In this document: piece by piece, positions 5,146 to 23,830 of the stretch
Layout of the letters: every line of letters begins with the position of its first letter
How positions within the stretch are numbered: position 1 is the stretch's first letter
Assembly (NCBI GenBank): GCA_009602725.1
Contig: WELB01000119.1
Span: 275,817-306,117 of the forward strand
Reading direction: 5' to 3'
Source: Spirogloea muscicola
Taxonomy: Eukaryota > Streptophyta > Zygnematophyceae > Spirogloeales > Spirogloeaceae
DNA: 30,301 nucleotides
Made by a program: the position numbers and the translations under genes
The notes under the pieces: model-generated
The model's input: only the letters and a program-made list of their open reading frames with translations
The model's database searches: none
What the model was told of the DNA's origin: nothing

Positions 5146-5750
5146 CCTCTGAGGGTTGGGGTTGAGGTGTACTTTTGTGAATAGTTGCAGCTCGTCTCCC
5201 ATAGTCTTATGCCAGGTCTCCTCCCATAGATTCACATCAAGATCAGGATCGATCTCTCAGACATCAGCTTATGCTGTGCCGATCTGTGAATAGTGAGACA
5301 TACATTCAATATCAATCTGAAATCAAGAACATGCTCATTCCAGATTACAATTCAATCATAGACTGTCTCGTTCGTTGTGCGCTTCTTTGCAAGCCTGAGC
5401 TTGAGTGTGAACGTCTGCCTCAGTGCTAAAATAAAGCTGGGAAGCTCCGTCTTTTCAAGCATGAACATTGTTGGGGTTTGTGGCACGGGGGTGAGATTGA
5501 CTGATGATCGTTATCTCTCTATCCCGAGCAGTAGCACTACCAAATTCACAGGTCATGCATCCAACTGAGCTGCATTCATGGGCTTCACAGCTCAATCTCA
5601 CGAGCTCCTGTGTGGAAGGAGAGGAGTGACTGTTTGATGGCTGCAAAAGGGCAAGACCATCGAGGTGGACAAATTCAGCCCTGGGGAGCTGTGGCTCCAG
5701 GAATAGAGGCACTTCTATTCTAAAAGGAGGTTAGACGCTTCCAAGAGAGG
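5146..5750. other. Gene-free stretch downstream of the endopeptidase gene
   Basis: This stretch follows the CGEP stop codon and should hold its 3' UTR. I see no ORF with recognisable homology, no RNA gene and no TGTAA-type polyadenylation signal. From about 5750 it passes into the repeat-derived region. Confidence 0.5.
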
Positions 5751-5751
5751 G

Positions 5752-5867
5752 CGGTGGCTGGGAAGAAGCCAGCCCAGAAAGAAGAATGCACAAAGTTCGA
5801 AGGGGCCAGGGAAAGCACTAAAGCACAAATGGAATTTAGCATGTAAGCAGCTGCAAATCACTCAGTA
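5752..5867 (-). repeat. Diverged retroelement 3' tail with hairpin
   Basis: Read on the minus strand this follows the LLSRGY-stop end of the ORF fragment at 5868-6280. It carries a diverged hairpin (GGCTGG at 5756-5761 pairing with CCAGCC at 5769-5774), an AAGAATG-like stretch, the block GGGGCCAGGGAAAGC and the CACTCAGTAACCCCTGCT end motif. It matches the tails at 6850, 7140, 18300, 21200 and 21460 in order and orientation. Confidence 0.7.
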
Positions 5868-6280
5868 ACCCCTGCTTAGCAGCCGCAGGTTGGACACAGT
5901 GGTCTCCTGGTAGCGGGTCCCCTGGCCAGGGCTAGAGGCTGCAGTTAAGGCACGACCGTCACGAGAAACTAGCGCGCGAGCCATGGACCTCTGCAGCGAG
6001 ACGGACAGGCGCATGCGGTACACCTGCGCGAGCCAGCCTGCTGCTTGAGAATCCAATGGCACCGGCGGAAGACAGTGCGACGCGATAGCTGGTGGAGCAG
6101 CTCGAGCCACCGAGCGCCCAATGCACCGTGGGTGTCAATGGCGGGCGGGAAGAACTCGTCGTCCCGCGGGTGGTCGCCATACTTCCACTCGTTGGCCCTG
6201 ACGGCGCGGGCCACTGCATGCCCAGCCTTGGAGGCAGGTTGCGTGGCGTGGGTTCGGCCGAAAGAGTGGATGGTCACCAC
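5868..6280 (-). pseudogene. Retroelement nuclease-ORF fragment, left arm of an inverted repeat
   Basis: The minus strand encodes broken pieces of the ORF family seen at 18.4-23.8 kb: an ASKAGHAVA segment, a KYGDHPRDDEFFPPAIDTHG segment, ARWLELLHQLS, then the terminal LLSRGY with its stop near 5868. Frames shift between these pieces, so no intact protein is possible. It lacks the zinc finger and the DVVTTDAY core, which would lie further 5'. A second copy in the opposite orientation (6310-6708) faces it head to head. Confidence 0.75.
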
Positions 6281-6309
6281 GTCCAGGATGAGACGCGGCC
6301 CGCCAGCCA

Positions 6310-6708
6310 GTGGACTCTTTCGACCGAACCCACGCCACGCAATCTGCCTCCAAGGCTGGGCATGCGGTGGCCTGCGCCGCCAGGGCCAAGGACGGCGACT
6401 ACCCGCGCGACGACAAGTTCTTCCCGCTCGCCATCGACACTCACGGTGCGTCGGGTGCTCGGTGGCTCGAGCTGCTTCACCAGCTCTCGCATCACATTAT
6501 CTCCCGCCGGTGCTTTGGGGAGCCGGTGAATTTCCATGCAGCAGGCTCACTCGCCCAGGTATACCGCATGCGCTTGGCCGTCTCGCTGCAGAGGTGGCTT
6601 GCGCGCTGCATCTCCGTGCCGGTCGTGCCCTTGCTGCGGCCTCTGGCCTTGGGACCCGCTATCAGGCGACCAGTTTCTCTGACCTGCGGTTGCTTAGCAG
6701 GGGTTACT
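6310..6708 (+). pseudogene. Retroelement nuclease-ORF fragment, right arm of an inverted repeat
   Basis: The plus strand reads THATQSASKAGHAVACAARA, then DYPRDDKFFPLAIDTHG, ARWLELLHQLSHH, GSLAQVYRMRLAVSLQR and, in another frame, the terminal CGCLAGVT/LLSRGY region with the CAGGGGTTACTGA end near 6705. It is the same C-terminal part as the left arm but inverted. It is the only clear copy of this family on the plus strand. Frame breaks in the C-terminal third and the absence of the N-terminal domains mark it as dead. Confidence 0.75.
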
Positions 6709-6849
6709 GACGAGTGTTTCGTGGCTGCTTGGTTCTATGTTGTGCTATATATAGCTTCAGCAAGATGCGCTCAATAACCGTGAGTCAGCAAGCACAGATC
6801 ACAAAGCCCCTCAACCCGAAGACCCTGGACCTTGGAACACATTGAGAAA

Positions 6850-7000
6850 AGAGAGAGTGCTCGCCCATTGAGGATAGGGGCTGGAAAAGCCAGCCCAGAA
6901 AAGAATGAACAGAGTACGAGACGGGGGCTAGGGGAAGCGCTAAGAGAAGCTAAGCACACAAAGAGACGAAGCAGGTACGAGTCACTCAGTAACCCCTGCT
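6850..7000 (-). repeat. Retroelement 3' tail with perfect hairpin
   Basis: Contains GCTCGCCCATTGAGGATA, then a hairpin at 6877-6896 (7-bp stem GGGCTGG/CCAGCCC, loop AAAAG), AAAGAATGAACA, GGGGGCTAGGGGAAGCGCT, AAGCACACAAAGA and the ACTCAGTAACCCCTGCT motif near 6985. No ORF portion remains except the last codons, so this is an extremely 5'-truncated copy read on the minus strand. Confidence 0.75.
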
Positions 7001-7138
7001 AAGAAGAAGAAGCTGCTAAGCAGCCGCAGGTCAGAGACGCTAGGCCAAGCAGGCAGCGTCGGGGCGGCTGAGGCGGCGTGGGCCCGACGGCGCGCGACGG
7101 GGCGTTCCCGGGGGCCGCCGCTTCAAACGCAGAAAGAA

Positions 7139-7370
7139 AGGGCTCGCCCATTGAGGCCAGAGAGGATAGGGGCTGGACAAGCCAGCCCAAAAAAGAATGA
7201 ACAAAGAACGAGAAGGGGGCCAGAGAGGATAGGGGCTGGACAAGCCAGCCCAAAAAAGAATGAACAAAGAACGAGAAGGGGGCCAGAGGAAGCCAGAGGA
7301 AGCGCTAAGAAACCAAAGCACACAAAGAAAGAAAGCAGCTACAAATTACTCAGTAACCCCTGCTAAGCAG
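7139..7370 (-). repeat. Retroelement 3' tail with a 63-bp tandem duplication
   Basis: Same tail as at 6850-7000, but the segment carrying the hairpin is duplicated head to tail with period 63 (7156-7218 and 7219-7281, then a partial third start). The two hairpins lie at 7170-7188 and 7233-7251, each GGGCTGG-ACAAG-CCAGCCC. The tail ends with CTCAGTAACCCCTGCTAAGC at about 7349-7368, roughly 320 bases before the RPA1 start codon. Confidence 0.8.
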
Positions 7371-7689
7371 ACGCCGCCGCCTGCTTTCCCGCGCTCCGGC
7401 GCGCCTCCACATGTGGCGGGGCTGCTCCCCGCCGGGCGCACCCCACCCGCCATTCTGGCGGCGCCGCCCGAATTGGCGGCCCCGCCAAAACTCTTTTGGC
7501 GCGGCCGCAAAAGGCTTCTTTCCCTTCTCCAGCGGCCCCCCGCGCCGCCGCCTCATGCGCCGCGCCTCGCGCCGTGCCCCGCGACGCGCCGCGCGCTGCG
7601 CCTCTCTCGCGNTGCCCAAGCCCGGCGCCGGCACGCCCGGGCGTTGCGCCCGCTTGAGAGCGTGGGGCGGGGCCGGGTGAGGCGCCGCC
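7371..7689 (+). promoter_or_regulatory. RPA1 promoter and 5' leader, GC-rich
   Basis: GC-rich stretch between the last retroelement tail and the RPA1 ATG. It holds the E2F-like sites and one undetermined base (n at 7612). The start codon context GCCGCCATGG at 7684-7693 is strong. No TATA-like element stands out. Confidence 0.45.
7474..7502. promoter_or_regulatory. Candidate E2F/DP binding sites upstream of RPA1
   Basis: TTTGGCGC at 7495-7502 fits the E2F consensus TTTSSCGC exactly. CCGCCAAA at 7482-7489 is the reverse complement of the near-consensus TTTGGCGG, and TTGGCGGC at about 7473-7480 is a weaker variant. They lie about 190-215 bases upstream of the ATG. RPA and other replication genes are classical E2F targets in plants and animals, so the position makes sense. 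Binding itself is inference. Confidence 0.5.
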
Positions 7690-10600: not shown

Positions 10601-10949
10601 CTTCAAGTGCGGCAAAGATGGACACTTTGCCCGTGATTGCCCGCAAGGTGGGAGCGGCGGTTATGGAGGAGGTGGAGGAGGTGGTGGAGGCGGGGCTTTC
10701 GGAGGCGGGGGCGGAGGTTATGGAGGCGGCGGCTTTGGAGCTGCAACGGGTGGCGGTGGCAGTGGCAGTGGCGGGGGAGGTGGAGGCCAGAACTGCTTCA
10801 AGTGCGGGCAAGGAGGCCACTGGGCAAGGGACTGCCCCAACCAAGGCAGCGGGGGCGGCGGCTACGGTGGCGCTGCATTGAAGAAGGGCGATGGCTATGG
10901 TGGCGGTTATGGAGGTGCCCGGCAATACGGGGCAGGTTTCCAGGACTAG
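7690..10949 (+). CDS. RPA1: Replication protein A 70-kDa subunit with C-terminal CCHC zinc knuckles
   Basis: Large subunit of the RPA single-stranded-DNA-binding trimer used in nuclear replication, repair and recombination. Exons 7690-7958, 8323-9066, 9272-9479 and 9633-10949 join in phase to 845 residues. Order: N-terminal OB fold DBD-F (about 1-105), low-complexity linker, DBD-A ([17 protein letters not shown] onward), DBD-B ([20 protein letters not shown] onward) and DBD-C. DBD-C has its C4 zinc site at Cys 521, 530, 544 and 547 with the plant-type [14 protein letters not shown] spacing. A glycine-rich tail of about 180 residues carries two CCHC knuckles, [14 protein letters not shown] (730-743) and [14 protein letters not shown] (795-808). 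Such knuckles mark the plant RPA1C/E-like class, linked in plants to repair; assigning that role here is inference. The ATG has a Kozak-like GCCGCCATGG context. The gene converges on the helicase gene. Confidence 0.95.
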
Positions 10950-11202
10950 CTAATAGACAGCAGGTTGTAGAGGTGCAAGGATGTACAGAAGACATTGTCA
11001 GACCATTCTTTAGTCACAGCTCCCACACTGCCTTTAGCAGAGAAGGTCCTTTTGCCATCACACAGCGCTGCAGAAGCCTCGCTGTTTTGCTCGACATTCT
11101 GATTCCTGGGGTTGATGGTACTTGCATGATGCTTCCCCACGGCATAGCTTGCTCGGTGCATGCAATGCAGCTGCTTCCAGGGAGGGCAAGTCACCTCTCG
11201 AT
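10950..11202. other. Convergent intergenic spacer
   Basis: 253 bases between the RPA1 stop (plus strand) and the helicase stop (minus strand). It must hold both 3' ends. I see no TGTAA signal on either strand, no stem typical of a terminator and no ORF. Overlapping 3' UTRs are possible. Confidence 0.6.
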
Positions 11203-14200
11203 CTAGAGGGTGACACGCCACGCAGAGCCCTCGGACTCCTCAGAAAACATGCTGTCCCTGTGGCCCATGCCAAGCAGCGAGAGCTCAGCCAGCCGCTCCA
11301 GCGCACTGCCTATTTCCTCAGCACAGCCCTCGTCAGCTTCACCAGCATTCAGGGTGGAGGATTCCGAGGTAGCCTTCACGTGCGCTCCGTTGGGGGACTC
11401 TGATCTGTACCCTGCAACGTCCGTCTTGCATTCGCCTGGTGTGTCGGCAGAGGCATACAGATGCAGGTGGTGACGGCCAGTGCCCTCGTACGCGTCCCGT
11501 GCGATGCAGTAGCGCAGTAGCTCCCGCCAGTTCGCATCTTGGTACAATGCAACAGGATGTCCAAGCACCACAAGCAGGGCCTGCAGGCGCATCACTCCAA
11601 GCAAATGTTGGCACAACCTTCAAGAAAAGCAGATAGTGTTCTCGAGGTTGTTGACTTATATACAGGTAAACTTACATGACCACCTATCGCTCTGTGGCTA
11701 GCAGTCAGCAGTCAGCAGTCAGCAGACCAACTGCAGTTGATGCAGCTATTGATGGGCGCTCCCCTGGGTGTCATTTGCACCCAATTCTCCAAAACCAATG
11801 CTTATGTACATCTGTTGCAACCGAAGGACGAACAAGGACGTTGGACCTTAGCTCGCGTAATGGCAACATTGAAGCGCTTAGCATTGCCCAGGATGCCCGC
11901 GTGCGAGTCCTCGCCATCGTCAAGGGGTCGTGTGCTGACTGTTGAGATGAATATGATTCTCTCCTCTTGGCCCTGCAATCATGTTACCGACTTTGTAAGC
12001 TCCCCTGGGAGGCATGTCCAATCCCTCTCCCGCTACGAGGAGATCAAGGGAGAGCTCCCCGACATTGTATAGTGACAAGATCATATTGAGGGCTCAGCGT
12101 GTGACCTTGATACTGTTGAGCAGTCATGGTTTCTGCCAACGAGCTAATAGAACAACCTCTCCAGTTCCTTGAATGCTTAAATCTGCGGAGAATGTATACA
12201 ACAGATGACCTGGTAGTCGTCGACCGTGCCAACTCGCACTCCTGCAAGCTGCCGCTCCCTCAACAACAAGCGAATCCGTCGGACCTGCATCAGAGAGGTC
12301 GTCAGGCAAACAAGCGGACTCCGAAACATCTTGCTGTGCTACAAGTCAGCATATCAAAGGAGCTGGTCAGCGCAAGTCAGCCCATTGGACCTGCTTGCGA
12401 TAGGGGGTCATGACGCCTATGTCTCCGATAGTTGCATTTCTGCTTGCTAGCAGCCCCTCAACCAAGTCAACAAGTCGGGTGGCTTCCACAGGTGTAGTAA
12501 GATGGGGAGTCGCCATCCTGCACTTGAGTGCCCTGGACTCCAACGAATAGCATCGGGAATGACCTCCCACGTAACTCCGCCCAGCCTGAAGGTGGCTCAA
12601 CCGCTGAGGCCTGCAAGGTATCATTGTTGAACATAACGAGGGTAAATCTCTACAGTCTCTTGAAGCGGCAATGAAGCATGAGCATTTTTGGCCTCTTCAC
12701 ATGCCACCATAAGCAATATGCAGGTGAGGGCTTGATTGGTACAGATTGTTTATCACTGTGATAGTCATCATTATGCTTCAAATTTGCAGTCCTCCGTCGC
12801 AGTTCTTAACGATGGTGGGGCTGGACCGTCACAGACCTACCTTGGCGCAGGCAATGAGCTCGTCATTATAGAACATCCTTGAAGGCAGCTCCAATAGCTG
12901 CACCATTTCATACAACCCCAACAGATGTTGGCCCTCAGGTTGCTCGCAATCTGTTGCCAGCATCTTGCTCGGTTTGAGATGTAGGGTTGAAGGTTGCTGA
13001 ACACCTAGTAAACTCTATCTTGCACTGCCAACATGTGATGCAGTGCATCAGCACTTCACTGGCACAAGGATGGCATTTGCTGCTGTTGCTGCAATGGTTC
13101 AGTATTGACAGCATCGAGCACCTTGCTGTTGGCCCTGTAATTCTTCACGAGCTTCGCCTCCGTCTTTTCAGGTGCAATCTTCTTGGCAAGCACAATCTTC
13201 TCCAGCAACGACAGTCCAAAGCCTGTCCTTCTCGCCTCCTCCGAATGCACCTAGAAAGCGGCTTGTCAAAGTAGAAGTCATGGTGCAAGAACCAAGACTG
13301 ATGATGCCATCCCAAGGGTTTTCAGATGTGAAGCTCTCAGCAGGGGTCACATCCACTTGTTGAGGCACATGCAAGACTTGCAATGTCGCTTCGTTTTCAT
13401 CCTGCCAACACTTTATGCATGTCATCACAGGCATGTCTTCACAAGCGCAGAGATGATGAAAATCTCCATTATAGGAAATGCAGACTTGCACTCTGGCAAG
13501 TATCAACTCACCACAGGGCCAAGCTGACAAGGATCCCCGCACAAGAGAATGCGGGTCCCACTGTTGGCGAGTGTTAGGGGGATCAATGTCTCTGGAATAA
13601 GAGCCTGTGCATACGGTTTGGGCAAACAGACATCTCTATTGAAGGACATCAGCTGACCAGACCAACAAATGCTCGAGCAAGCAGCTGTAATGCTCGAAGG
13701 TGCTGCGCTTCTTTGGAATGTAGTCATAATCAAGCTACTACAGTAAGGCTTTCTTGCTCAGCACAGCAAGCAATCTCCCATTGCTCTGCACAGCAAGCTG
13801 TTTTTAAGCACAATTCAATCTATGTATACCTGACCAGCTTCATCAATCAGTATGTGCGAGAAAGAAGCCCCGAATGGGTACAGCGGCAAGGAATGGAGCA
13901 GAGAAGCAGAGGCACAGGTGCCGATGATAATCCTGAATTGTTCTGGATTAGATTTGAGGTCAAAGAGACCAAGTTGCTCATTGTAACAGCAGAAATTTGG
14001 CCCACCATATCGCCTGTATGCAAAAGCGTGGCTCAGATAGGCTGTCCAAAATTTCTCCCAGCAACAGATTTGCATGAAGTGGCTTAGTAGGAGGCGCCTC
14101 AATTGGGGCTGGGCTGTCAGGGATATAGAACGAAGAGAAACCACGAAGACGGACGTGCAGGTTGTCTAGGATTCCCAGGAGAGCCATCATGAGAGTTCCA

Positions 14201-17200
14201 CTCAAGTAGCAAAAGTGGTGAGTAATTTTTGACAAGCTATGAGATCATGGGTTGCTACCCAATGACATCGTCTTTGACTGAGGCCGCCATTCGGTGTGGG
14301 TCAACCAAGCGCCACATAACATCTGGAGAGATGCCACCCTGGCTCGCCACTCCGCTGCAAAAGAAGGTGATGTCAGACCTCGCTGTATAAGTATATGTAT
14401 ATGGTGTGAATGCATAGAAGAGAATATGCTCATACTATTGTGGCAGTCTCCTTCTCCAAGCTACCCTCTGCACCAATGATTATGAACAAGGTGCCCGACA
14501 CAGCAAGCTCGTCTCTCCCCTCGACGTTCAGACTCGTGGAAGATTTTGCCGACAAATGTAGCTACTGCCCATATTTGTGCAGGTGACACCAGTCACAAAA
14601 TGGAGAAGAAGAAACCCAGGTGGGGCTTTACTGATAAGGTGCTGAAGAGGATTCCAAAGAGGATCCAATTGTTACTGCTGGTTGTAGCGCCAATTGAAAG
14701 CTGAAATAGATGACTAATCATGCTGACCTGCAAAGGATGTCTGCTGCATAGTTGGAGGGCGCACAGGCACATATTCTGGCTGTAGAATCGTGACACAGAA
14801 TCTGCAGTATGCATTCTAAGACCTTCACGGACGGAAGTTGCCAGGTTATAGTTAGTCAGTCTCCTTCCTTGAATTATTCCGTGGGGCCCTCAATGGCCAT
14901 GATGTTGCAAATATGGGTATCAAAAGATTGCAAGGCCTTCTGGATCAAGAGTTGCTCAAAAGGCATTTGACTGCAAAGATGAGTCAATGACCTACCATTA
15001 TGGTCTTGCCAGTGCCAGGTGGCCCTATGATGGTATATGGGCCTGAGCCATGGGAAGCCTCCAGGAGCATCTTTACTGCGCCAATCTGCTCTTCATTCAG
15101 CACCTCATTGATCTGCCAGCCAGCATAAGACTGATATGGGTTGTATGCATGTAGTAATCTGTGCTGATTATGCGAATGACAGTCAAGACGTCTTTACTAG
15201 AGTGAGGGTTTGTGAGATCGTGGACACTGCCCAGCCTCACGCTCAAGGGAAGTCTTACCAGCTGCAGTGGCTCCCTTGCCTTCAAGAGTCTTCTGCAAAC
15301 ACAGTGGACCGTGATCATTCGCACTGGCAAGGCAAAGCATCTTCATGAGTTCCAACCTGCAGAATGTGGGAGGTCTGCCTAGCAATTGACAACTTCTTGG
15401 GTGATTACCTCGCGCTGTCGCCTCTGTCTGCTGGTTTGCCTTCTGTCAGGTCTTGCGTCTGCGGAGAGGATATATTCTGGGCCTCTTCTACCTCGCAGTG
15501 GCAGGGCAGAAGTGTGACATGACACGACCTGGCCGCGCTTATGGCAACGTGCATCCGCTGCCAAGCAAGGACAAGGTAACCAGCTCTTTGTTGGTATAGT
15601 TACCTGCAAGGTAAAAGTAACTAAGCGTAACAGTCACAATGAGTAGCATATTTGACCTTGATTTCATTGACATAAGCGCTGGCCATTTGTGGGTTCCCAG
15701 GAGAAGGTTACATTCACCTCCAGTGCAAGACGATCAAAGCTGAAGCGGACATGGACTAATTCGTGCTCCAGCGAACGGACAGAAGAGGTGAAAGCCTTGG
15801 TTAAACGCAAGTACAGCTGAACACAGTCAAGACAGCCACCGAGGTATCAGTTGTAGTGCTTGCTGAACAGCACAGCTTTGTGCCATACTCTTCTCATCTC
15901 CTCCTTCAACTAGTTTATGCGGACCATTGCTCTATACAGGTTGCATCTCTTTCCAAGAATCTGGGCATCACCTGGGGAGTCTCCCGGAGATCTACTGCCT
16001 GTACAGTAGCAGCACATCCAATAAAGGGAAGCCGAGCGAGGCGTACGTACACCACATCTCCTCTCAGTACTGCCGGCCTGTTTTCTAGCAGGCCAGGTAC
16101 CTTACAAAGAGGAAGTAAAAGATAAGTCAGCGTTGCTCCTGAAGGCAGTACCTGCCTCAGGTCAGGGAGTGCTTGGGGAAGCTGTGCCTGCCTGGAGCTG
16201 GTACACGAGCTTGTCTGAAGCAAGTGGCATCCGCTGGAGAAGATGGACGTTGAACATGTCGTAGGCCCTGATGTCAAGTTGTATGGCAGCCTCCTCGAGC
16301 TTCAGCTGATTTGACAGCTGCAAAAGGGCAGCTCCTTCGTAGTCCAATGCAATGCTTCGAGGGACGCAACAAGCTGGGGGTCAAGGTCACCATCAAGCTT
16401 CTGCATGTTGACTTGGTAAGCGTCATGGAGCAAGAGAAGGTCATTTCATCGACAAGCAGCGAGCCTGAGGAATACCTCATCCAGTTGCTTATGGAGACAG
16501 CCACACTTTTGCCGGCTGCTTCGGTGGGGAGCTAGCGAAAAGGGGATCTTGCTGGGGCCCCTGTTGACTTGCAATGGCGCATGAAGAGGCCTCGAAAAGG
16601 CCTGCAGAACCACCTGCCGATGGTAGCTGGCCATCCATGGCAGCATCTCCGGAGGGTGCGCCACTGAGAATTGGACAGGGGGCTTGTCAAAGAGGTACTT
16701 CAGGGAGGCCGGGAAGAAGGGCTTTGCTTCCTTGCTGCGTGCAGAAGAATGAGTAGCGCTTGCAGCATCAGCCAAAGCAACAGATGAACCTGCGGGTGTT
16801 CACCGAAAGCACAGCTGGATGAACGGCAGAATGACAATTGCTGCACCTTAGGAAGGAGTCCACCTCCGCGGCATTGCGAGCAATGAGTGCAGTGACTCTG
16901 CGCCCCACGATGCAGAGAGCCTGGGAAGGCTGTGGAGAGGAGTTGCTGGCAATTGTTGGGAGCAGAGCGAACGTCAGGAGCAGCCACTGGTGCAGGAAGG
17001 CCGCCTCCTGGGGCGTGCACAGCAGCTCCTGTGGTGCACACCACGCCTTTGAGCTAAGAGATAAGGCAGCTGCCAGTCCAGCGGTCTGAGCAAATAGCTG
17101 ATGCCTAAGCCCCTTTGGACATGAATATAGAAGTTCCCATCCTATAACCCGTGATCCTGGACTTTGGGCTGACGGCGTCCTGCCCCAGTTGACTGCGCCC

Positions 17201-18079
17201 TGCCCTGCCGCAGTACAAGGCATTGCAGGCAAGCCAGCAGTGCCCAGAGTGCGGGATGAGAGCCTGGAGCAGAGCGCGAGCACGAGTGAGGTGGTACTCA
17301 CGACGGTGAGCTGATACTCTGAACGGGGCGGCAGGAGCACCGCCCGGCCGGCACCCCGTTCGCGTGGCCTGGCAAGCCCGTGGTCGTCGTGGATCGACGT
17401 GGTAGAGCCCAGTGACGGCAGCAGCCGCAGGTCCAGCAGCAGCGCTGGCACGCTGCCGCAGTTGTGCACTGACAAGGAACGGAAGTACGCCGGCGCAGCA
17501 AATCTGGTGTCACCGCGGGTCAGCAGCGGCCCCCGGAAGCCAGGGAGGAATGGGGCGGCGGCCTCCTGGGCGAAGGCGGCAGCGCGCTTGACGCCAAAGT
17601 CCACGCTGTGCGACAGGACGATGGGGCCGCCCGCCAGCATGAGCTGCATGGCCACCGGCATGGACGTCAGACGACCCACATCGTGGCCGCAGAGAAAACG
17701 GCAGCGCAAGCCGTCGAAGGGCAAGGCAGGGCAAGGCTAGACAAGGCAAGGCAACGCTGGCGCATCAATGTGGGGCCGCCGCACCGCTTGGGGGCCCGCG
17801 CGGATGGCGTCCAGAAGGCGCGCCTCGTGGCCGGCCATGGCCTCCGCCGCCCATGCTGGCAGCTCCGTGGCGGCTGCCTGTGGCGGGCTCGGGTACAGGT
17901 CCAGGATCATCCCCGCGACCGGGCTGGGCATGGCCTCCTCTGAAGCTCGCCGTGCTTGCCAGGCGAGGCCCTGCGGAGCCAGCGCCGAATCCGAGAGCCA
18001 CAGTGATGAACCTGGGAGCTGCCAGGCTCACCTGCGACTGCGTCAGGCCGAGCATGGGGGGCTGCTGCAGCCGCACCAT
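11203..18079 (-). CDS. SDE3: SDE3/MOV10-like SF1 RNA helicase, with an apparent one-base frameshift
   Basis: Upf1-like SF1 RNA helicase; plant SDE3 acts in RNA silencing. Well-phased core exons (minus): 15130-14996 (Walker A GPPGTGKT at 15002-15025), 14779-14728 (CAPSNYAAD), 14354-14259, 14013-13830 (DEAGQ), 13604-13512 (GDPCQLGPV), 13250-13122 (LVKNYR), 12897-12841, 12610-12391 (frameshifted; TPYRKQ), 12284-12210 (VGTVDDYQ), 11972-11847 (GQE...RFNVAITRAK), 11580-11203. Upstream: 15816-15718, 16100-15972 (VPGLLENRPAVLRGD), about 16369-16192 (RAYDMFNV), 16734-16614, 17028-16847, an exon ending 17302, and probably 17970 onward and 18079-18032 (proposed start). The N-terminal exons resemble the SDE3 beta-rich region only weakly. 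Unresolved: joins between 15718 and 15130, and the helix after Walker A, perhaps 14939-14909 with a GC donor. Exon 12610-12391 is 220 bases and switches frame after GDSPSYY. Confidence 0.85.
11701..11724. repeat. 7-bp microsatellite (GCAGTCA)n in a helicase intron
   Basis: GCAGTCA is repeated three times followed by GCAG, inside the last intron of the helicase gene (11846-11581). It is short and perfect, and nothing suggests a function. Confidence 0.7.
12391..12610 (-). other. Helicase exon carrying a one-base frameshift
   Basis: On the minus strand the first part reads SGWAELRGRSFPMLFVGVQG and on to GDSPSYY, matching the SDE3/MOV10 segment before motif V. The same exon then matches the family only in the next frame (PVEATRLVDL ... 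IGVMTPYRKQ). The switch lies near 12495 at TACTACACCTGTGG. The flanking splice sites are both phase 0, yet the exon is 220 bases long, one more than a multiple of three. No splice-site pair at this spot can absorb it. Confidence 0.8.
16101..16191 (-). other. Probable GC-AG intron in the helicase gene
   Basis: The upstream exon ends ...SDKLVYQLQ at 16192 with CAG, the intron begins GCAGGC, and the acceptor TTTGTAAG precedes 16100. The product reads VYQLQVPGLLENRPAVLRGD, matching the SDE3/MOV10 LxLEVPG...RPS block. The only GT alternative (before VYQLQ) removes five conserved-position residues. Confidence 0.65.
17706..17757. repeat. GGCAA/GGCAGGGCAA low-complexity run
   Basis: A run of (A)GGCAA-type units with GGCTAGA interruptions lies between two putative N-terminal exons of the helicase gene and breaks the reading frame there with an in-frame TAG on the minus strand. 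It is most simply intronic. Confidence 0.5.
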
Positions 18080-18230
18080 ACAGCGAGTCCCTGACTGTCT
18101 CAACAGGAAGCCTTAGAGTGAGGCCAAGGAAGAAAGAAGCGGCTGCTGATATTTTAAAATCGGCTGTAAACTGCCAGCCAGATGCATACAGGTGTTCATG
18201 ACGGAGCCAAAGGCTAGGAAGAAAGAAGAG
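18080..18230. other. Short spacer upstream of the helicase gene
   Basis: About 150 bases between the proposed helicase start and the retroelement-derived region. It contains an AT-rich stretch (GATATTTTAAAATCG near 18147-18161) that could belong to the helicase promoter on the minus strand. No ORF of interest is present. Confidence 0.35.
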
Positions 18231-18370
18231 CGCGCGCCCATAGAGAAGAAAGTGCTCGCCCATTGAGAATAGGGGCTGGAAAACAAATGAGCTCGCCCAT
18301 AGAAGCGAGGGGCTGGTAGAAGCCAGCCAAAAAAGAATGGACAAAATCCAAAGAGCTACAGGAGAATCAC
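18230..18370 (-). repeat. Retroelement 3' tail, two hairpin modules
   Basis: Holds GCTCGCCCATTGAGAATA followed by a partial hairpin half (18251-18285), then GAGCTCGCCCATAGAAG and a hairpin (GGCTGG at 18311-18316, CCAGCC at 18323-18328), AAAAAAGAATGGACAAAATC and the end motif ACTCAGTAACCTCTGCT near 18368. A segment of about 65 bases (18296-18360) is nearly identical to 19151-19219. Confidence 0.75.
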
Positions 18371-18970
18371 TCAGTAACCTCTGCTAAGCAGCCGCAGGTC
18401 GGAGATGCTAGGCTCGTTGAAGTGGGTCCCCTGGCCAGAGCCAGAGGCAGCAGCGAGGGCTCTGCCGGCACGAAGGTGCAACGCCCGGGCCATAGACCTC
18501 TGCAGCGAGACGGCCAGGCGCATTCGATACACTTGCGCCAGCGACCCGACTGCAGGAAAGCTCCCCATGGAAGCGACGGGCGATGGTGTGGCGGGCGAGC
18601 TGGGTGAGCAGCTCGAGCCACCGAGCGCCCACCGCCCCATGGGTGTCAATTGCCAACGGGAAGAACTCGTCTTCCCGCGGATGGTCTGCGTACTTCAGCT
18701 CTTTGGCCCGAGCAGCGCAGGCGACCGCATACCCAGCCTTGGAGGCACATTGAGCTGGGTGTGAGCGGTCGTAGGCATGTGGTCACCATGTCCAGGAGAA
18801 GACGTGGCCCGCCGGCCTGTGGGGTGGCCACCAGGTCTACACGCCGGGCGTGGAGACCGTCGGCCCTTTCCTGAATCGGCATGATGCCGGAGTGCTCCGC
18901 TGCCAAGGAGAAGCCCGCCTCCAACAGCATGCCATCCATCGCGTCGCGGAGGCGGTCGTGGGCTGCTGTC
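18371..18970 (-). pseudogene. Retroelement nuclease-ORF copy, 5'-truncated and frameshifted
   Basis: Minus-strand remnant ending in ISDLRLLSRGY-stop. Pieces in different frames cover AHDRLRDAM, LLEAGFSLAAEHSGIMPIQE, ARRVDLVATPQAGGP, LLLDMVTT, then (shifted) the KY-DHP segment and GSLAQVYRMRLAVSLQRSMA through GRALAAASGSGQGTHF. The frame is lost just after the LLLDMVTT core by a small deletion near 18775. The 5' end abuts a half-hairpin GCTGGAAAAGCCAGCCC at about 18972, so the zinc finger is missing. Confidence 0.75.
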
Positions 18971-19260
18971 CGCTGGAAAAGCCAGCCCGAAAAAGAAATA
19001 GAGAAGAGGGCTGGCAAAGCCAGCCTAAAAAGAATGGACAATGTCTGAAGCCAAAGAAAAGAGGTGCCGAAAAGAGAAAGTGCTCGCCCATTGAGGATAG
19101 GGGCTGGAAACAGAAGCGCGGCCAGATTGACTGGTGGCTGGGAAAGAAAGAGCTCGCCCATAGAAGAGAGGGGCTGGCAGAAGCCAGCCAAAAAAGAATG
19201 GACAAAATCCAGAGAGCTACAACTGGTGCCGAAAAGAAGGGAAACACACAGCTAGGCATC
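18971..19260 (-). repeat. Cluster of hairpin-tail modules without ORF
   Basis: At least four hairpin-like modules in the same orientation: GCTGGAAAAGCCAGC at 18972-18986, GGGCTGGCAAAGCCAGCC at 19008-19025, a broken one after GCTCGCCCATTGAGGATA at about 19080-19112, and GGGCTGGCAGAAGCCAGCC at 19171-19189. Each is followed by an A-rich run and AGAATGGACAA. This looks like repeated insertion of very short 3'-end copies into each other. Confidence 0.7.
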
Positions 19261-19511
19261 TAGACAACTAGACATGACGAAACCACAGGAAGTACAATAC
19301 CCGCGGGTGAGCAACATCAGGTCAGAGTAGCTTGAAGCTGGAAAAGATGCAGGCAGACGAGACCCGGAAGCAGCAACAAGAAGAAGGCGCGCGGGGCGCA
19401 TGAAATGAAATGGAGGCCAATTCAGGCCGACACATTGTTCAGGCAGAGTCTAGGGCAAACTAAACAGGGCTACATAATACGGAAACCGAATCCGAAGTGC
19501 CTAAGGTGACA
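19261..19511. other. Spacer between retroelement copies
   Basis: No coding potential, RNA gene or family repeat was recognised here. A CCCGCGGGTGAGC motif at about 19302 resembles CCCACGGGTGAGC at about 19518, the end of the next ORF copy, so a remnant of another diverged 3' end is possible. Confidence 0.4.
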
Positions 19512-19514
19512 TCA

Positions 19515-21203
19515 GTACCCACGGGTGAGCACAAACAAATCCGACAAGCTAACTTGGGGAGCTGGAGCGCCGCCACGAAAGCCGGAGGCCTGACTCAAAG
19601 CGCGCCCTGCACGTTGATGAAGAGCCAATGCTTGCGAGCGCTGCAAACTAAGTGAGAGCCGCATTCTATAGTATGCAACTAAGGCCTGCGGAATGCTGTG
19701 GTGGCCCAAGCTGCCCCCCCGACTTCGACGACGCACATCAACCAGCCGGGCCAGATGCTGGATCAGGGAGGACCATTTTAAGCCGTAGCCTCCATAAATA
19801 TCCATGGCACACGGATAAAGGTGGTCCCCTCGGGGATGGTCCTGGTAGTGCCGCTCCTCCTTGCGATCTGCGCTGGACGTGGCCCAGCCAGACACGGTTG
19901 ACGTGGGTGCGCCAGCCTTGTACGCGTCGATCAGTACCACGTCCAGGAGCAGACGGGCCAACCGCCCCGGGGGGTGGCGACCACGTCCAGACGCCGCACG
20001 TACGGCTTGCCGCGCCTTGAGGAGATTGGCATGATGCCGGACACCTCCATCGCCGGATGATACCCCGCCTCTCGCACATTTCCAAACACAGTTTCCCTGA
20101 GTAAGTCGTGGCAGGCAATGGGCTCACGCCCCTCAACACATCTCAGCATATGAGCAGCTAGATCGAGCTTGTCACCGGCAATGTGGCCACACTCGCACTG
20201 GCGGATGCCAGCCAAGCAAGGGGGGGGAGGCCGAGGTGGTGGTGGAGCGCTGTACGAAACAGCTTGTCTGTGAGCCGAAGGGACTCGTATATCGGCAGGG
20301 CGTTCAGCCACTCAGACGCGCCCGGGGAGCTGATGAAAGGAGCCGGGTGAGGCCACGTCCATCGCCCTTGAGCAGTCCCTTCAATTCAGAGGCGGCCTGC
20401 ACGTTCGCAGCGTGAGTGTAGTGCGCCTGCGCTTTCCTGTCAGAACAGCGTGCCCATGCCGCAAAATCTGCATGACCCTCTGCAAGTGTTGGTAAAGAGC
20501 GCGAGAGGTCATGCAGTGCTGCGGTGAGGGAAAGCTGGAAGGGCAGGTTCCCTGTTGCAACACCCGCTATAGCGGGTGCTAAAACAGCCTGGCCCCTCAG
20601 GATGAAGCGACTGGAGATGGTGGAGGCCACTTGGGCAACAAGAGCACGGCCCGCGCGCGAGTGGACGGCATGAGCGAGGGAGCGTTGAAGCGACACGGAG
20701 AGCCGCATCCGGAAGACCTGGGCCAGGGAGCCGGCCGCGTTGAAGCCGGGCAGCCCCCCTGGCGGACCCGGCCGCCGCTCCATGGCCTGCCGGGCAAGCC
20801 GCAGCCAGCCGCTGCCATAAGCCCCGTGGACGTCTATGGCAAGGGCCGCGAACTCATCGCCTGGGGGGTGATCAGCATACTTCCGCTCCTTGCCCCGGGC
20901 CGCCAAAGCGACCGCATGCCCAGCGGTCGCCGCCGACTTGGAGGGATTGGCGGAGTCGACACAGTCGGCGGTCACCACATCCGCGATGATACGCGGACCG
21001 CCGCCGGGCGGGATGGCGACTAGGTCTGCGCGCCAAGTGTGGAGCTGACCATCGGCGCCGCGCACGGGGGGCATTGTTGACGGCATTGTTGACGAGTGCT
21101 CCACGGCCACCTTGTAGCCCGCCTCGATGAAGACACCCTGCATGCCATCCCTGAGAAGGTCATGGGATCCGGTCCTCTCGCCGCCGTGGGCACATTGGAG
21201 CAT
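19515..21203 (-). pseudogene. Longest retroelement ORF copy, two nuclease-type domains in series
   Basis: On the minus strand the first domain starts at HMLQCAHGGERTGSHDLLRD and runs through WRADLVAIPPGGGPRIIADVVTADC, KERKYADHPPGDEF, IDVHGAYGSGW and FRMRLSVSLQRSLA. A linker of about 100 residues follows, with SEWLNALPIYESLRLTDKLF. A second domain then begins at GIRQCECGHIAGDKLDLAAH (zinc finger C-x-C/H-x3-C), continuing with HDLLRE, RRLDVVATPRGG, LLLDVVLIDAY, KEERHYQDHPRGD, YYRMRLSLSLQRSQA and a terminal LTRGY-stop near 19515. Breaks are visible near 20325, at the eight-G run 20220-20227 and near 19945, so it is not intact. The R-x-D...D-V...K-Y pattern fits PD-(D/E)xK nucleases such as the endonuclease of R2-like elements. 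That family assignment is inference. Confidence 0.75.
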
Positions 21204-21383
21204 GTGGGAAAGGCCAGCCCAAAGGAATGGACAAGGTCTGAGGGAGCTTGAGTGCGAACGACTAGGACTAAGGCATCAGCTGGAAAGGCCAGCCCAAAAA
21301 AGAATGAACAAAGTACGAGAAGGGGGCCAGGGAAAGCGCTAAGGAAAACAAGCACACGAAGACACAAAGCAGCTATGCAGCAC
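21204..21383 (-). repeat. Retroelement 3' tail with two hairpin modules
   Basis: A half-hairpin GGGAAAGGCCAGCCC at 21206-21220 abuts the 5' end of the preceding long copy. A second, GCTGGAAAGGCCAGC at 21279-21293, is followed by AAAAAAGAATGAACAAAGT, GGGGGCCAGGGAAAGCGCT, AAGCACACGAAGA, AAAGCAGCTA and CACTCAGTAACCCCTGCT at about 21380. All lie 3' of an LLSRGY stop when read on the minus strand. Confidence 0.75.
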
Positions 21384-21455
21384 TCAGTAACCCCTGCTAA
21401 GCAGCCGCAGATCAGAGATGCTAGGCTCCTGGAAGTGGGTCCCCTGGCCAGAGGG
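21384..21455 (-). pseudogene. Very short 3'-terminal retroelement ORF fragment
   Basis: Only the last 20 or so codons are present on the minus strand: GQGTHFQEPSISDLRLLSRG and the stop. The upstream side joins directly into another tail (GCTCGCCCATTGAGAATA). A 70-base remnant with the same 3' end as copies more than 1 kb long is what 5' truncation during reverse transcription would leave. Confidence 0.7.
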
Positions 21456-21588
21456 AGGAAGTGCTCGCCCATTGAGAATAGGGGCTGGAAAAGCCAGCCC
21501 AAAAAAGAATGAACAGAGTACGAGAAGGGGGCCAGGGGAAGCGCTAAGAAATTCAAGCACACACAGAAACAAAGCAGCTACGAATCCC
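21456..21588 (-). repeat. Retroelement 3' tail with perfect hairpin
   Basis: GTGCTCGCCCATTGAGAATA followed by a perfect hairpin at 21481-21500 (GGGCTGG, AAAAG loop, CCAGCCC), AAAAAAGAATGAACA, GGGGGCCAGGGGAAGCGCT, AAGCACACACAGA, CAAAGCAGCTACGAATC and CCTCAGTAATTTCTGCT. Almost identical to the tail at 6850-7000. Confidence 0.8.
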
Positions 21589-22375
21589 TCAGTAATTTCT
21601 GCTAAGCAGCCGCAGGTTGGAGATGCTAGGCTCGTGGAAGTGGGTCCCTTGGCCAGAGCCAGAGGCAGCAGCGAGGGCTCTGCCGGCACGAAGGTGCAAC
21701 GCCCGGGCCATAGATCTCTGCAGCGAGACAGCCAGGCGCATATGATACACTTGCGCCAGTGACCCGGCTGCAGGAAAGTCGACTGGCTCCCATTGGAAGC
21801 GACGGGCGATGGTGTGGCGGGCGAGCTGGGTGAGCAGCTCGAGCCACCGAGCGCCCACCGCCCCATGGGTGTCAATTGCCAACGGGAAGAACTCGTCTTC
21901 CCGCGGATGGTCTGCGTACTTGAGCTCTTTAGCCCGAGCGGCGCAGGCGACCTCATACTCAGCCTTGGTGGCACATTGGGCTGGGTGTGAGCGGTCGTAT
22001 GCGTCGGTGGTCACCACGTCCAGGAGAAGACGTGGCCCGCCGGCCTGTGGGGTGGCCACCAGGTCTACGCGCCGGGCGTGGAGACCGGTGGCCCATTCCT
22101 GGATCGGCATGATGCCGGAGTGCTCCGCTGCCGCGGAGAAGCCAGCCTCCACCAGGATGCCATGCATCGCATCGCGGAGGCGGTCGTGGGCCGCTGTTCG
22201 CTCGCCGCCGTGGGCGTAGCGCAGAACATGAGCGGCCAGCTCCCCAGACTCGGCCCCTCGCTCGCCGCATACACACTGACGCACGCCCTGGAGACGTGGA
22301 GGCAGCAGCCCCAGGAGCCGGTGGACGGCAGTGCGAAATACCTCATTGGGGAGAGCGAGGGCGTCACTGATGGGG
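21589..22375 (-). pseudogene. Best-preserved retroelement nuclease ORF segment (5'-truncated)
   Basis: The frame is open on the minus strand from LPISDALALPNEVFRTAVHR to a stop after NLRLLSRNY, about 260 residues with no break. Order: LPxxDAL...FRTA...LGL block; a finger CVCGERG...HVLRY, in which the last Cys found in the copy at 22673-23830 is replaced by Tyr; GGERTAAHDRLRDAMHGILV; HSGIMPIQEW; ARRVDLVATPQAGGPRLLLD; DVVTTDAYDR; KELKYADHPREDEFFPL; IDTHGAVGARWLELL; RMRLAVSLQRSMARALHLRA. This most closely resembles the C-terminal part of an R2-type non-LTR retrotransposon protein, with R-x-D, D-V and K-Y as candidate catalytic residues. No reverse transcriptase part remains. There is no start signal of its own. 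Confidence 0.7.
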
Positions 22376-22660
22376 AGGGCCAGAGCCAGAGGCAGCAGCG
22401 AGGGCTCTGCCGGCACAAATGTGCAGCGCGCGGGCCATAGACCTCTGCAGCAAGACGGCCAGGCGCATGCGAGACACTTGCGCCAGCGACCCGGCTGCAG
22501 GAAAGTCCACCGGCTCCCCATGGAAGCGACAGGCGATGGTGTGACGGGCGAGCTGGGTGAGCAGCTCGAGCCACTGAGAGCCCCGCGAAAATAAAATAAC
22601 ACAAAGTACAAGTAGGGGGAAAGGGGAAGCGCTAAGGAAAACAAGCACACCTAGAAACAA
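22376..22660 (-). pseudogene. Partial retroelement copy fused to the segment below it
   Basis: Encodes SLAQVSRMRLAVLLQRSMAR and ICAGRALAAASGSG on the minus strand, then joins directly, without a 3' tail, to LPISDAL of the neighbouring copy. The 5' side at about 22575 breaks into an AATAAAATAACACAAAG stretch and a tail lacking the hairpin. The fusion recreates the order [nuclease C-end]-[LPI block] seen in the two-domain copy, but with the roughly 100-residue linker deleted. Confidence 0.6.
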
Positions 22661-22672
22661 AGCAGCTACGAA

Positions 22673-23830
22673 TCACTCAGTAACCCCTGCTAAGCAGCCG
22701 CAGATCAGAGATGCTAGGCTCCTGGAAGTGGGTCCCCTGGCCAGAGGCAGCAGCGAGGGCTCTGCCGGCACGAAGGTGTAGCGCGCGGGCCATAGACCTC
22801 TGCAACGAGACGGCCAGGCGCATGCGATACACTTGCACCAGCGACCCGTCTGCAGGAAAGTCCACCGGCTCCCCATGGAAGCGGCGGGATACACTTGCAC
22901 CAGCGACCCGTCTGCAGGAAAGTCCACCGGCTCCCCATGGAAGCGGCGGGCGATGGTGTGGTGGGCGAGCTGGGTGAGCAGCTCGAGCCACCGAGCGCCC
23001 ACCTCCCCATGGGTGTCAATTGCCAACGGGAAGACCTCGTCTTCCCGCGGATGGTCGGCGTACTTGAGCTCTTTAGCCCGAGCGGCGCAGGCAACCGCAT
23101 ACCCAACCTTGGTGGCACATTGGGCTGGGTGCGAGCGGTCGTATGCGTCGGTGGTCACCACGTCCAGGAGAAGATGTGGCCCGCGGTCTGTGGCGTGGCC
23201 ACCAGGTCTACGCGACGGAGCGTGGAGACGGTCGGCCCTTTCCTGGAGCGGCATGACGCCGGAGTGCTCCGCTGTCACCGAGAAGCCAGCCTCCACCAGG
23301 ATGCCATGCATCGCATCGCGGAGGCGGTCGTGGGCCGCTGTCCGCTCGCCGCCGTGGGCGCAGCGCAGAACATGAGCGGCCAGCTCCCCAGACTCGGCCC
23401 CTCGCTCGCCGCATACACACTGAGGCACGCCCTGGAAACATGGAGGCGGCAGCCCCAGGAGCCGGTGGACGGCAGTGCGAAATACCTCATCGGGGAGAGT
23501 GAGGGCGTCGTTGATTGGGAGGGCCTGAAGCCACGCCGCTGCCCCCGAGGAGGAGGCCGATTGAAGTCTCGCGCGCCCGCGCAAGTCGACCTCGGGGAGC
23601 TGCAGCACGGCGGTGGTGTGGGCGGCCTTGTCCACCACGGCCGCGAAGCGCGCTTGGACGCGCAGGTCAGCGGTGTGCGCGAGCTGCGCAGAGGAGACCG
23701 TCTGGCCTGCCAGGTCCGGGTGCGCCGCGAGCAGCTCCTGGTGGGCGGAGCGAAGCGACACCTGGAACCGCAGCGCGCCCATGTCGACCTCCACCACCGC
23801 CTGCTCCAGTGCACGCTGGCCACGTCAAGC
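22673..23830 (-). pseudogene. Retroelement nuclease-ORF copy extending furthest 5'
   Basis: The minus strand reads VEVDMGALRFQVSLRSAHQE, linker, AAWLQALPINDALTLPDEVF, RTAVHRLLGLPPP, CVCGERG...HVLRCAHGGER (complete C-x-C/H-x3-C), HDRLRDAMHGILVEAGF, EHSGVMP, then a short out-of-frame stretch where the R-x-D-L-V motif should be, back in frame at LLLDVVTTDAYDR, KELKYADHPREDE and IDTHGEVGARWLELL. A 62-bp tandem duplication at 22828-22951 then shifts the frame before the RMRLAVSLQRS region. It keeps a 374-codon open frame only by chance after the shift, so I call it a pseudogene. Upstream of about 23830 the homology stops. Confidence 0.75.
22828..22951. repeat. 62-bp tandem duplication
   Basis: 22828-22889 and 22890-22951 are identical except for the last base (A versus C). 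The duplication lies inside a retroelement ORF and, since 62 is not a multiple of three, breaks its frame. Near-identity suggests a recent event or an assembly artefact. Confidence 0.9.

What the first reader, a model, noticed from the sequence alone, without database searches (positions are those of the whole stretch)
19515..23830. Unclassified retroelement ORF family with zinc finger and PD-(D/E)xK-like nuclease region, at least six local copies
Five minus-strand copies (18.4-23.8 kb) and two fragments (5.9-6.7 kb) share a protein with an LPIxDALxL...FRTA block, a C-x-C...H-x3-C finger, GGER..HD.LRD, R-x-D-L-V, LLLDVVTTDAY and K-Y-x-D-H-P. Seen directly: the motifs, the shared end and the variable 5' lengths. 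Known: the restriction-like endonucleases of R2/NeSL-type non-LTR elements have a CCHC finger followed by PD and D-V motifs. Inference: this is the C-terminal part of such an element in this alga, possibly a lineage-specific family. No reverse transcriptase is present in the window.
Basis: partly seen in the sequence, partly recalled or inferred. Interest (0 to 1): 0.75.

Follow-up and report, generated by a model that had tools for sequence, protein, structure and literature searches.

The report
Nested algal LINE retrotransposons with R2-type nuclease
The repeated stretches are the 3' ends of "jumping genes" that copy themselves through RNA with a reverse transcriptase and an R2-like cutting enzyme; they are abundant in this green-lineage genome, often sit inside one another, and belong to a known kind of element that may form an undescribed branch.

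Summary
The window carries six minus-strand, 5'-truncated copies (18.2-23.8 kb) and fragments at 5.7-7.4 kb of related families F1, F2, F3; two are nested in others with 8-nt target-site duplications. No reverse transcriptase lies in the window, but in five families read whole (F1-F4, F6) this region ends an ORF of 1267-1410 aa with RVT_1: one or two C2HC fingers, RT, a C-x-C...H-x3-C knuckle and a nuclease with D, D-V-V and K-x2-[K/H]-Y. A modest-confidence model of the nuclease matches R2 (rows 1-7, Z 9.1-11.3, rmsd 2.4-2.6). A piece of F1-type 3' tail occurs 7786 times in 153 Mb, the F1 5' end 19 times, fitting 5'-truncating target-primed reverse transcription. Insertions lie in or beside other copies more often than a small random sample suggests. 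So: restriction-like-endonuclease (RLE) LINEs, without detected apurinic endonuclease or RNase H (unlike Dualen) and without rRNA, U2 or tRNA next to 40 junction pieces. Their clade could not be placed (no named eukaryotic RT set). Ordinary in mechanism; moderately new in host, abundance and nesting.

The parts
22586..23821 (-). Copy A, family F1, 5'-truncated (F1 element positions 2900-4065); linker, knuckle and nuclease region, apparently frameshifted in the nuclease
   Evidence: blastn and tblastn of full-length relatives against the window; translation
22378..22587 (-). Copy Y, family F1, first part (positions 3717-3926); abuts copy A
21448..22388 (-). Copy X, family F1 (positions 3188-4117), inserted inside copy Y; its nuclease is open in P0002
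21279..21453 (-). Copy Y, second part (positions 3919-4081), resumes after X
22378..22385 (-). Target-site duplication of X, first copy (CTCTGGCC)
   Evidence: junction letters
21446..21453 (-). Target-site duplication of X, second copy (CTCTGGCC)
   Evidence: junction letters
20641..21218 (-). Copy Z, family F2, first part (F2 positions 3573-4148)
19382..20636 (-). Copy V, family F3 (F3 positions 2746-4009, 91% identical), inserted inside copy Z
19152..19374 (-). Copy Z, family F2, second part (positions 4153-4361), resumes after V
20635..20642 (-). Target-site duplication of V, first copy (CTTGTTGC)
   Evidence: junction letters
19373..19380 (-). Target-site duplication of V, second copy (CTTGTTGC)
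   Evidence: junction letters
18243..18974 (-). Copy U, family F1, 5'-truncated (positions 3375-4113) reaching the 3' tail
18137..18225 (-). Family F4 3'-end fragment
   Evidence: 92% over 89 nt
19004..19109 (-). Tail-only pieces of F1 (19109-19075) and F2 (19070-19004)
5756..6311 (-). F1-like fragment, one arm of an inverted pair
6310..6734 (+). F1-like fragment, other arm of the inverted pair
6852..7374 (-). F1/F2-type 3'-tail pieces (7374-7225, 7223-7134, 7045-7013, 7006-6852)

Best explanation
The repeats are 5'-truncated copies of several families (F1, F2, F3) of non-LTR retrotransposons (LINEs) of the restriction-like-endonuclease kind. A full-length F1 element (about 4.1 kb) encodes one protein: C2HC fingers that probably bind nucleic acid, a reverse transcriptase, a linker with a C-x-C...H-x3-C knuckle, and a C-terminal R2-type nuclease. 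Inferred cycle: the protein binds the 3' end of its own RNA, the nuclease nicks one target strand, the RT copies the RNA from the nick (target-primed reverse transcription), copying often stops early (5' truncation), and second-strand cleavage leaves a short duplication. Many copies land in or beside older ones, building the nested clusters seen here. Shown: RT domain, motifs, predicted nuclease fold, constant 3' ends without poly(A), variable 5' ends, 8-nt duplications at two nested insertions, high copy number, near-identical copies. Inferred: enzymatic activities, RNA recognition, present mobility.
For: One ORF of 1348-1357 aa in three F1 copies, alike after the variable 5' start; RVT_1 in F1 and F2, F3, F4, F6. 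PDB sequence matches led by R2 (single protein E 7.2e-7; profile of four families 3e-10, then an unnamed RNA-directed DNA polymerase 1.8e-5 and L1 ORF2p 3.5e-5). Nuclease model: Foldseek ranks 1-4 R2 (E 6.7e-4 to 0.03); second aligner rows 1-7 R2, Z 9.1-11.3, rmsd 2.4-2.6 over 131-144 residues. First D (R-x-D in F1-F4, R-T-L-D in F6), D-V-V and K-x2-[K/H]-Y in F1-F4 and F6; the first K of K-x2-K-Y is the catalytic K of RLE LINEs (PMC5678591, section 8). 3' ends: 18 of 20 long-frame copies align in one block to tail position 4110 or beyond, then diverge. 7786 tails against 19 5' ends (the tail pattern also catches sister families). Two 8-nt duplications.
Against: The nuclease model is of modest confidence (mean pLDDT 53; nuclease blocks mostly 58-80 with a dip to 41; 12-row alignment). 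Only one Foldseek match has E 0.001 or better, TM-scores are at most 0.33, and Tdp2 chains (a different nuclease fold, recalled) follow directly from E 0.041 with high probability, though at Z 4.2 or less in the second aligner. A sequence profile of this region finds no PDB chain at E 10. The knuckle spacing (CX1CX11-12HX3C) is not the CX2-3CX7-8HX4C given for RLE LINEs, the P of PD is absent, and G-x-W is G-x-x-W in F1-F4 and absent in F6. No activity was measured.
Confidence: 0.96

Rival explanations
1. The elements are Dualen/RandI LINEs, which carry an apurinic endonuclease, an RNase H and an RLE and are known from green algae.
For: Dualen LINEs are reported in all core-Reinhardtinia species examined in PMC8226300 (passages), and Dualen carries APE and RLE (PMC4640811, passages).
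Against: Pfam finds RVT_1 and weak zinc-finger hits only, no APE-type and no RNase H family, in one full ORF each of F1, F2, F3, F4 and F6. A separate upstream ORF was not searched for.
Confidence: 0.05
2. The elements belong to the NeSL/Utopia or the R2 clade proper, with target-site specificity lost. (This is a sub-case of the best explanation, not its opposite.)
For: Same domain order as described for Utopia: N-terminal zinc fingers, RT, one zinc finger, RLE (PMC4640811 section 9); R2 is the best PDB match for RT and nuclease.
Against: No Rfam family reached its cut-off in 20 F1-type and 20 F6 3'-flank pieces; tails are dispersed in thousands. R2 leads partly because it is the RLE LINE found in the PDB.
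Confidence: 0.4
3. The repeats are a domesticated nuclease gene family or a DNA-transposon nuclease unrelated to reverse transcription.
For: In the window itself only the C-terminal part is present.
Against: The same region is the 3' end of RT-encoding ORFs in five families; copies are 5'-truncated and a number of the listed matches carry stops.
Confidence: 0.01
4. Clustering reflects only where insertions survive (for example gene-poor regions), not any preference for other copies.
For: Close neighbouring F1 tails lie on the same strand in 7 of 14 pairs, as without orientation-specific targeting.
Against: 3' flanks touch element DNA within 60 nt in 11 of 19 F1-type and 8 of 21 F6 junctions against 3 of 60 random 300-nt pieces, 45 of which have letters (Fisher p 2e-5 and 0.003 against the 45). 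This does not separate preference from survival, the F1 set was picked for long frames, and the random set is 20 kilobases.
Confidence: 0.5

Closest known systems
R2 non-LTR retrotransposons (PDB 8gh6, 8iby, 8ibz, 8ibw, 9dou, 9nl2, 9nl3)
   Same: RT and C-terminal nuclease best matched by R2; finger(s), RT, linker with knuckle and RLE in one protein
   Different: No rRNA in the 40 flank pieces examined; knuckle spacing CX1CX11-12HX3C; dispersed in thousands; green-lineage host
Utopia / NeSL clade (PMC4640811)
   Same: Domain order ZF - RT - ZF - RLE (section 9)
   Different: No U2 in the 40 flank pieces; Utopia is reported from Amoebozoa, SAR and Opisthokonta (abstract), and the words alga, Chlamydomonas and Viridiplantae do not occur in the text; no RNase H as in oomycete Utopia
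Dualen/RandI LINEs
   Same: LINE with an RLE, present in chlorophytes (PMC8226300 and PMC4640811 passages)
   Different: No APE and no RNase H detected here
Zepp / ZeppL LINEs of Coccomyxa and Chlamydomonas (PMC8226300 passages)
   Same: Green-alga LINEs with a propensity to form clusters
   Different: L1 elements, clustered at putative centromeres there; here RLE-type and on many contigs. That L1 endonucleases are of APE type is recalled
Prp8 RLE-like domain
   Same: Two spliceosome chains (7abg_A, 6exn_A; taken to be Prp8 from recall) at Z 6.9 and 5.7; shared K and Y positions described for Prp8 and RLE LINEs (PMC5678591)
   Different: Prp8 is a spliceosomal protein, not an element; weaker match than R2, level with bunyavirus L endonuclease (Z 5.8-6.9)

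Membership tests
RLE-encoding non-LTR retrotransposons (LINEs) | Reverse transcriptase in the same ORF upstream of the nuclease | tested here: met
   RVT_1 in one ORF each of F1, F2, F3, F4, F6; R2 leads the PDB matches
RLE-encoding non-LTR retrotransposons (LINEs) | C-terminal restriction-like endonuclease fold | tested here: met
   [quoted passage not shown] rows 1-7 R2 at Z 9.1-11.3; model confidence modest
RLE-encoding non-LTR retrotransposons (LINEs) | Catalytic D, D and displaced K in K-x2-K-Y | tested here: met
   R-x-D (R-T-L-D in F6), D-V-V and K-x2-[K/H]-Y in F1-F4 and F6; the second K is H in F3 and F6, which PMC5678591 calls the less conserved one; the P of PD is absent; copy L004 has E for the second D
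RLE-encoding non-LTR retrotransposons (LINEs) | CCHC knuckle CX2-3CX7-8HX4C between RT and RLE | tested here: inconclusive
   A CCHC knuckle is in place but spaced CX1CX11-12HX3C in F1-F4 and F6, outside the published spacing
RLE-encoding non-LTR retrotransposons (LINEs) | G-x-W motif after the nuclease core | tested here: inconclusive
   G-x-x-W in F1-F4, GPRF in F6
RLE-encoding non-LTR retrotransposons (LINEs) | Hallmarks of target-primed reverse transcription: constant 3' end, 5' truncation, short target-site duplications | tested here: met
   duplications read at two nested insertions only
R2 clade | Insertion at the 28S rDNA site | tested here: not met
   No Rfam match in 20 F1-type and 20 F6 flank pieces; thousands of dispersed tails
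Utopia (NeSL clade) | Insertion in U2 snRNA genes | tested here: not met
   No Rfam match in the same 40 pieces; few reptile Utopia copies are flanked by U2 (PMC4640811 abstract), so this lowers but does not exclude clade membership
NeSL / R2 / CRE / R4 / HERO clades | Position in an RT tree with named members | not testable with these tools
   No named eukaryotic RT set was available
Dualen/RandI | APE and RNase H besides RLE | tested here: not met
   Neither found by Pfam in one full ORF of each of five families; other ORFs upstream were not searched
Green-lineage host | Nuclear RuBisCO small-subunit genes, TTTAGGG repeats | tested here: met
   8 matches at 4 places, all over the Pfam cut-off, each gene in two pieces; TTTAGGG arrays, some at contig starts; species unknown

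The most novel reading that the evidence does not exclude
These families form an undescribed green-alga clade of RLE LINEs without APE or RNase H, with its own knuckle spacing, that has left tight site specificity, amplified to thousands of copies and uses its own older copies as a landing zone, so that nested insertion spares the host genes.
Probability: 0.3. Interest if true: 0.6.

Novelty: new member of a known kind. Interest (0 to 1): 0.4.

Why it matters
Most RLE LINEs are described as target-specific (PMC4640811 abstract), and R2 is studied for transgene insertion (PMC12222951, abstract start in the listing). Near-identical, multi-copy RLE families in a green-lineage genome would show how such elements live without one fixed target, and offer natural RT-nuclease variants with a different knuckle and short 3' tails. 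The nested pairs also give ordered insertion series. In mechanism it is no surprise.

Tried and rejected
Rejected: a domesticated nuclease family (RT joined in five families); a head-to-tail array made by orientation-specific targeting (same-strand pairs are 7 of 14); U2, rRNA or tRNA targeting in the pieces examined (Rfam on the window, 0 matches); Dualen by domain content.

Led nowhere: Pfam on the window's own fragments (0 families for 4 proteins); PDB sequence search with P0002 (one row at E 5.3) and with the nuclease profile A1 (0 rows); relatives in viral contigs (12 pattern stretches, 0 confirmed) and genome contigs (66, 0 confirmed); literature searches touching RLE LINEs or LINEs in green algae (listings read, no RLE-only LINE of green algae noticed; most subscription journals are not in that library and Repbase was not available, so I do not claim it is unpublished). 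A common 3' RNA fold: only the F1 tail is clearly more stable than shuffles (z -4.65; F2 -1.18, F4 -0.65, F3 -1.71, F6 -1.16).

Rows dropped and limits: the 20 long-frame copies whose flanks were cut were picked by open frame from the 111 match pieces at 107 scored places. Of their 5' pieces, 9 of 20 begin within 30 nt of the F1 start used, 4 further in and 7 gave no usable 5' end. Of their 3' pieces, six match the F1 tail at only 73-82% (sister families); L046 reaches the tail in two blocks and L048 stops at 4015. Some long open frames are runs of N (L065, L066, L068, L071), so frame length overstates full-length copies. The 88 sites are those on C1-C4 and C6 among 100 listed of 7786; 12 listed on C7 and C8 were left out; the expectation (1.05, at most 5 in 2000 draws) assumes uniform placing. 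The 5'-end pattern had 1 control hit. In one search, 19 of 20 F1-type and 21 of 21 F6 junctions were used; 15 of 60 random pieces are N, and one of 20 random kilobases (L120) is 96% element and makes up most of the 6.8% random coverage. First-look candidate counts (5,063-18,138) are rough and not copy numbers. The second half of the script failed and was redone.
Full report
What is in the window. Blastn and tblastn of genomic relatives against the window show six minus-strand, 5'-truncated copies between 18.2 and 23.8 kb, plus an inverted pair and tail pieces at 5.7-7.4 kb. The six fall into three families that are about 50-70% identical in protein. Copy X (22388-21448) interrupts copy Y (22587-22378 and 21453-21279) with CTCTGGCC on both sides; copy V of family F3 (20636-19382) interrupts copy Z of family F2 (21218-20641 and 19374-19152) with CTTGTTGC on both sides.

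What the whole element is. In the genome (153.1 Mb, 471 contigs) the window protein P0001 has 111 match pieces at 107 scored places, a lower bound. Three copies fetched whole (L009-L011) carry one ORF of 1348-1357 aa that is the same, or nearly so, after a variable start. The F1 ORF holds two C-x2-C-x12-H-x3-C motifs (F2 two, F3, F4 and F6 one; pattern search; Pfam sees them only below its cut-offs), RVT_1 (E 8.4e-16), then the C-terminal region seen in the window. F2, F3, F4 and F6 have the same order, RVT_1 at 2.5e-13 to 1e-18. F5 was seen as a fragment only. Against the PDB the best matches are R2 retrotransposons (3e-10), then an unnamed RNA-directed DNA polymerase (1.8e-5) and L1 ORF2p (3.5e-5).

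The nuclease. The first D (R-x-D in F1-F4, R-T-L-D in F6), D-V-V and K-x2-[K/H]-Y are kept. PMC5678591 (section 8) gives the first K of K-x2-K-Y in the second helix as the catalytic K of RLE LINEs, and a CCHC knuckle upstream. The knuckle here is spaced CX1CX11-12HX3C, outside the range given there; the P of PD is missing; G-x-W is G-x-x-W in F1-F4 and absent in F6. [quoted passage not shown] Foldseek ranks R2 chains 1-4 (E 6.7e-4, 0.0018, 0.019, 0.03; TM at most 0.33), directly followed by many Tdp2 chains from E 0.041. The second aligner gives R2 in rows 1-7 (Z 9.1-11.3, rmsd 2.4-2.6, 131-144 residues), then bunyavirus L endonuclease and two spliceosome chains, taken to be Prp8, at Z 5.7-6.9; Tdp2 falls to Z 4.2 or less. 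A sequence profile of this region alone finds nothing in the PDB, so the fold rests on the model plus the motifs.

How it moves (inferred). The 3' end is constant and has no poly(A): F1 ends ...GAGCACTTTCTT(CT), and 18 of 20 long-frame copies align in one block to tail position 4110 or beyond before diverging, six of them at 73-82% identity. Most F2, F3 and F4 tails read also end in TTCT-type letters; F6 ends ...ATACACGCATTT or shorter. The F1-type tail piece is found 7786 times (control 0), the F1 5' end 19 times (control 1); the ratio overstates truncation because the tail pattern also catches sister families. With the two duplications this fits target-primed reverse transcription with frequent early stops. 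In 21 F6 junctions the fifth base after CACGCA is C in 18, a short nick-site preference or part of the tail; both sides of these junctions were not read, so this is open.

Clustering. Among 88 exact F1 tails on five contigs, 14 neighbouring gaps are under 1 kb where 1.05 is expected for uniform placing (at most 5 in 2000 draws), 7 of 14 on the same strand. The first 60 nt of 3' flank touch element DNA in 11 of 19 F1-type and 8 of 21 F6 junctions, against 3 of 60 random pieces, 45 of them with letters (Fisher p 2e-5 and 0.003 against the 45). Element DNA covers 6.8% of the random set, mostly in one kilobase. Whether this is target preference or survival in gene-poor DNA is not resolved.

Targets and host. 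No Rfam family reached its cut-off in 20 F1-type flank pieces (one without a clean junction), 20 F6 flank pieces or the window, so 28S, U2 or tRNA targeting is not seen. The host is of the green lineage: RuBisCO small-subunit matches at four places, each in two pieces, and TTTAGGG repeats, some at contig starts. The species is not known.

Known or new. This is an RLE LINE: the tests for RT, nuclease fold and catalytic residues that could be run are met. It does not meet the target tests for R2 and Utopia or the domain test for Dualen. Its clade could not be placed. Papers seen: PMC4640811 abstract, sections 9 and 10 and passages; PMC5678591 abstract and section 8; PMC8226300 passages; PMC5348765 passages; all others as search listings only.

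Noticed in passing
L027, L030, L035 (5' flanks on contigs C66, C453, C135): Three copies share an upstream F1 tail, the same 177-nt stretch and then the element's 5' end, yet have different 3' flanks (L047, L050, L055). This fits reverse transcription of a read-through RNA that began in an upstream copy; gene conversion or assembly effects are not excluded.
   Followed up: partly
L080-L100, 3' junctions of family F6: F6 looks young: 52 of 150 listed matches equal the query over all 124 aa. After CACGCA the fifth base is C in 18 of 21 junctions, a possible nick-site preference.
   Followed up: partly
L085, L091, L093, L096: F6 copies end directly against F1- or F2-type element DNA, so cross-family nesting occurs.
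   Followed up: partly
window 5976-6606: Two F1-like fragments lie head to head as an imperfect inverted repeat (arms 80-92% complementary).
   Followed up: no
window 7155-7280: A 63-nt stretch of element tail is exactly duplicated in tandem.
   Followed up: no
window 9624-10949: An ORF with two C-x2-C-x4-H-x4-C knuckles in glycine-rich sequence that looks by eye like the large subunit of replication protein A; no search was run.
   Followed up: no
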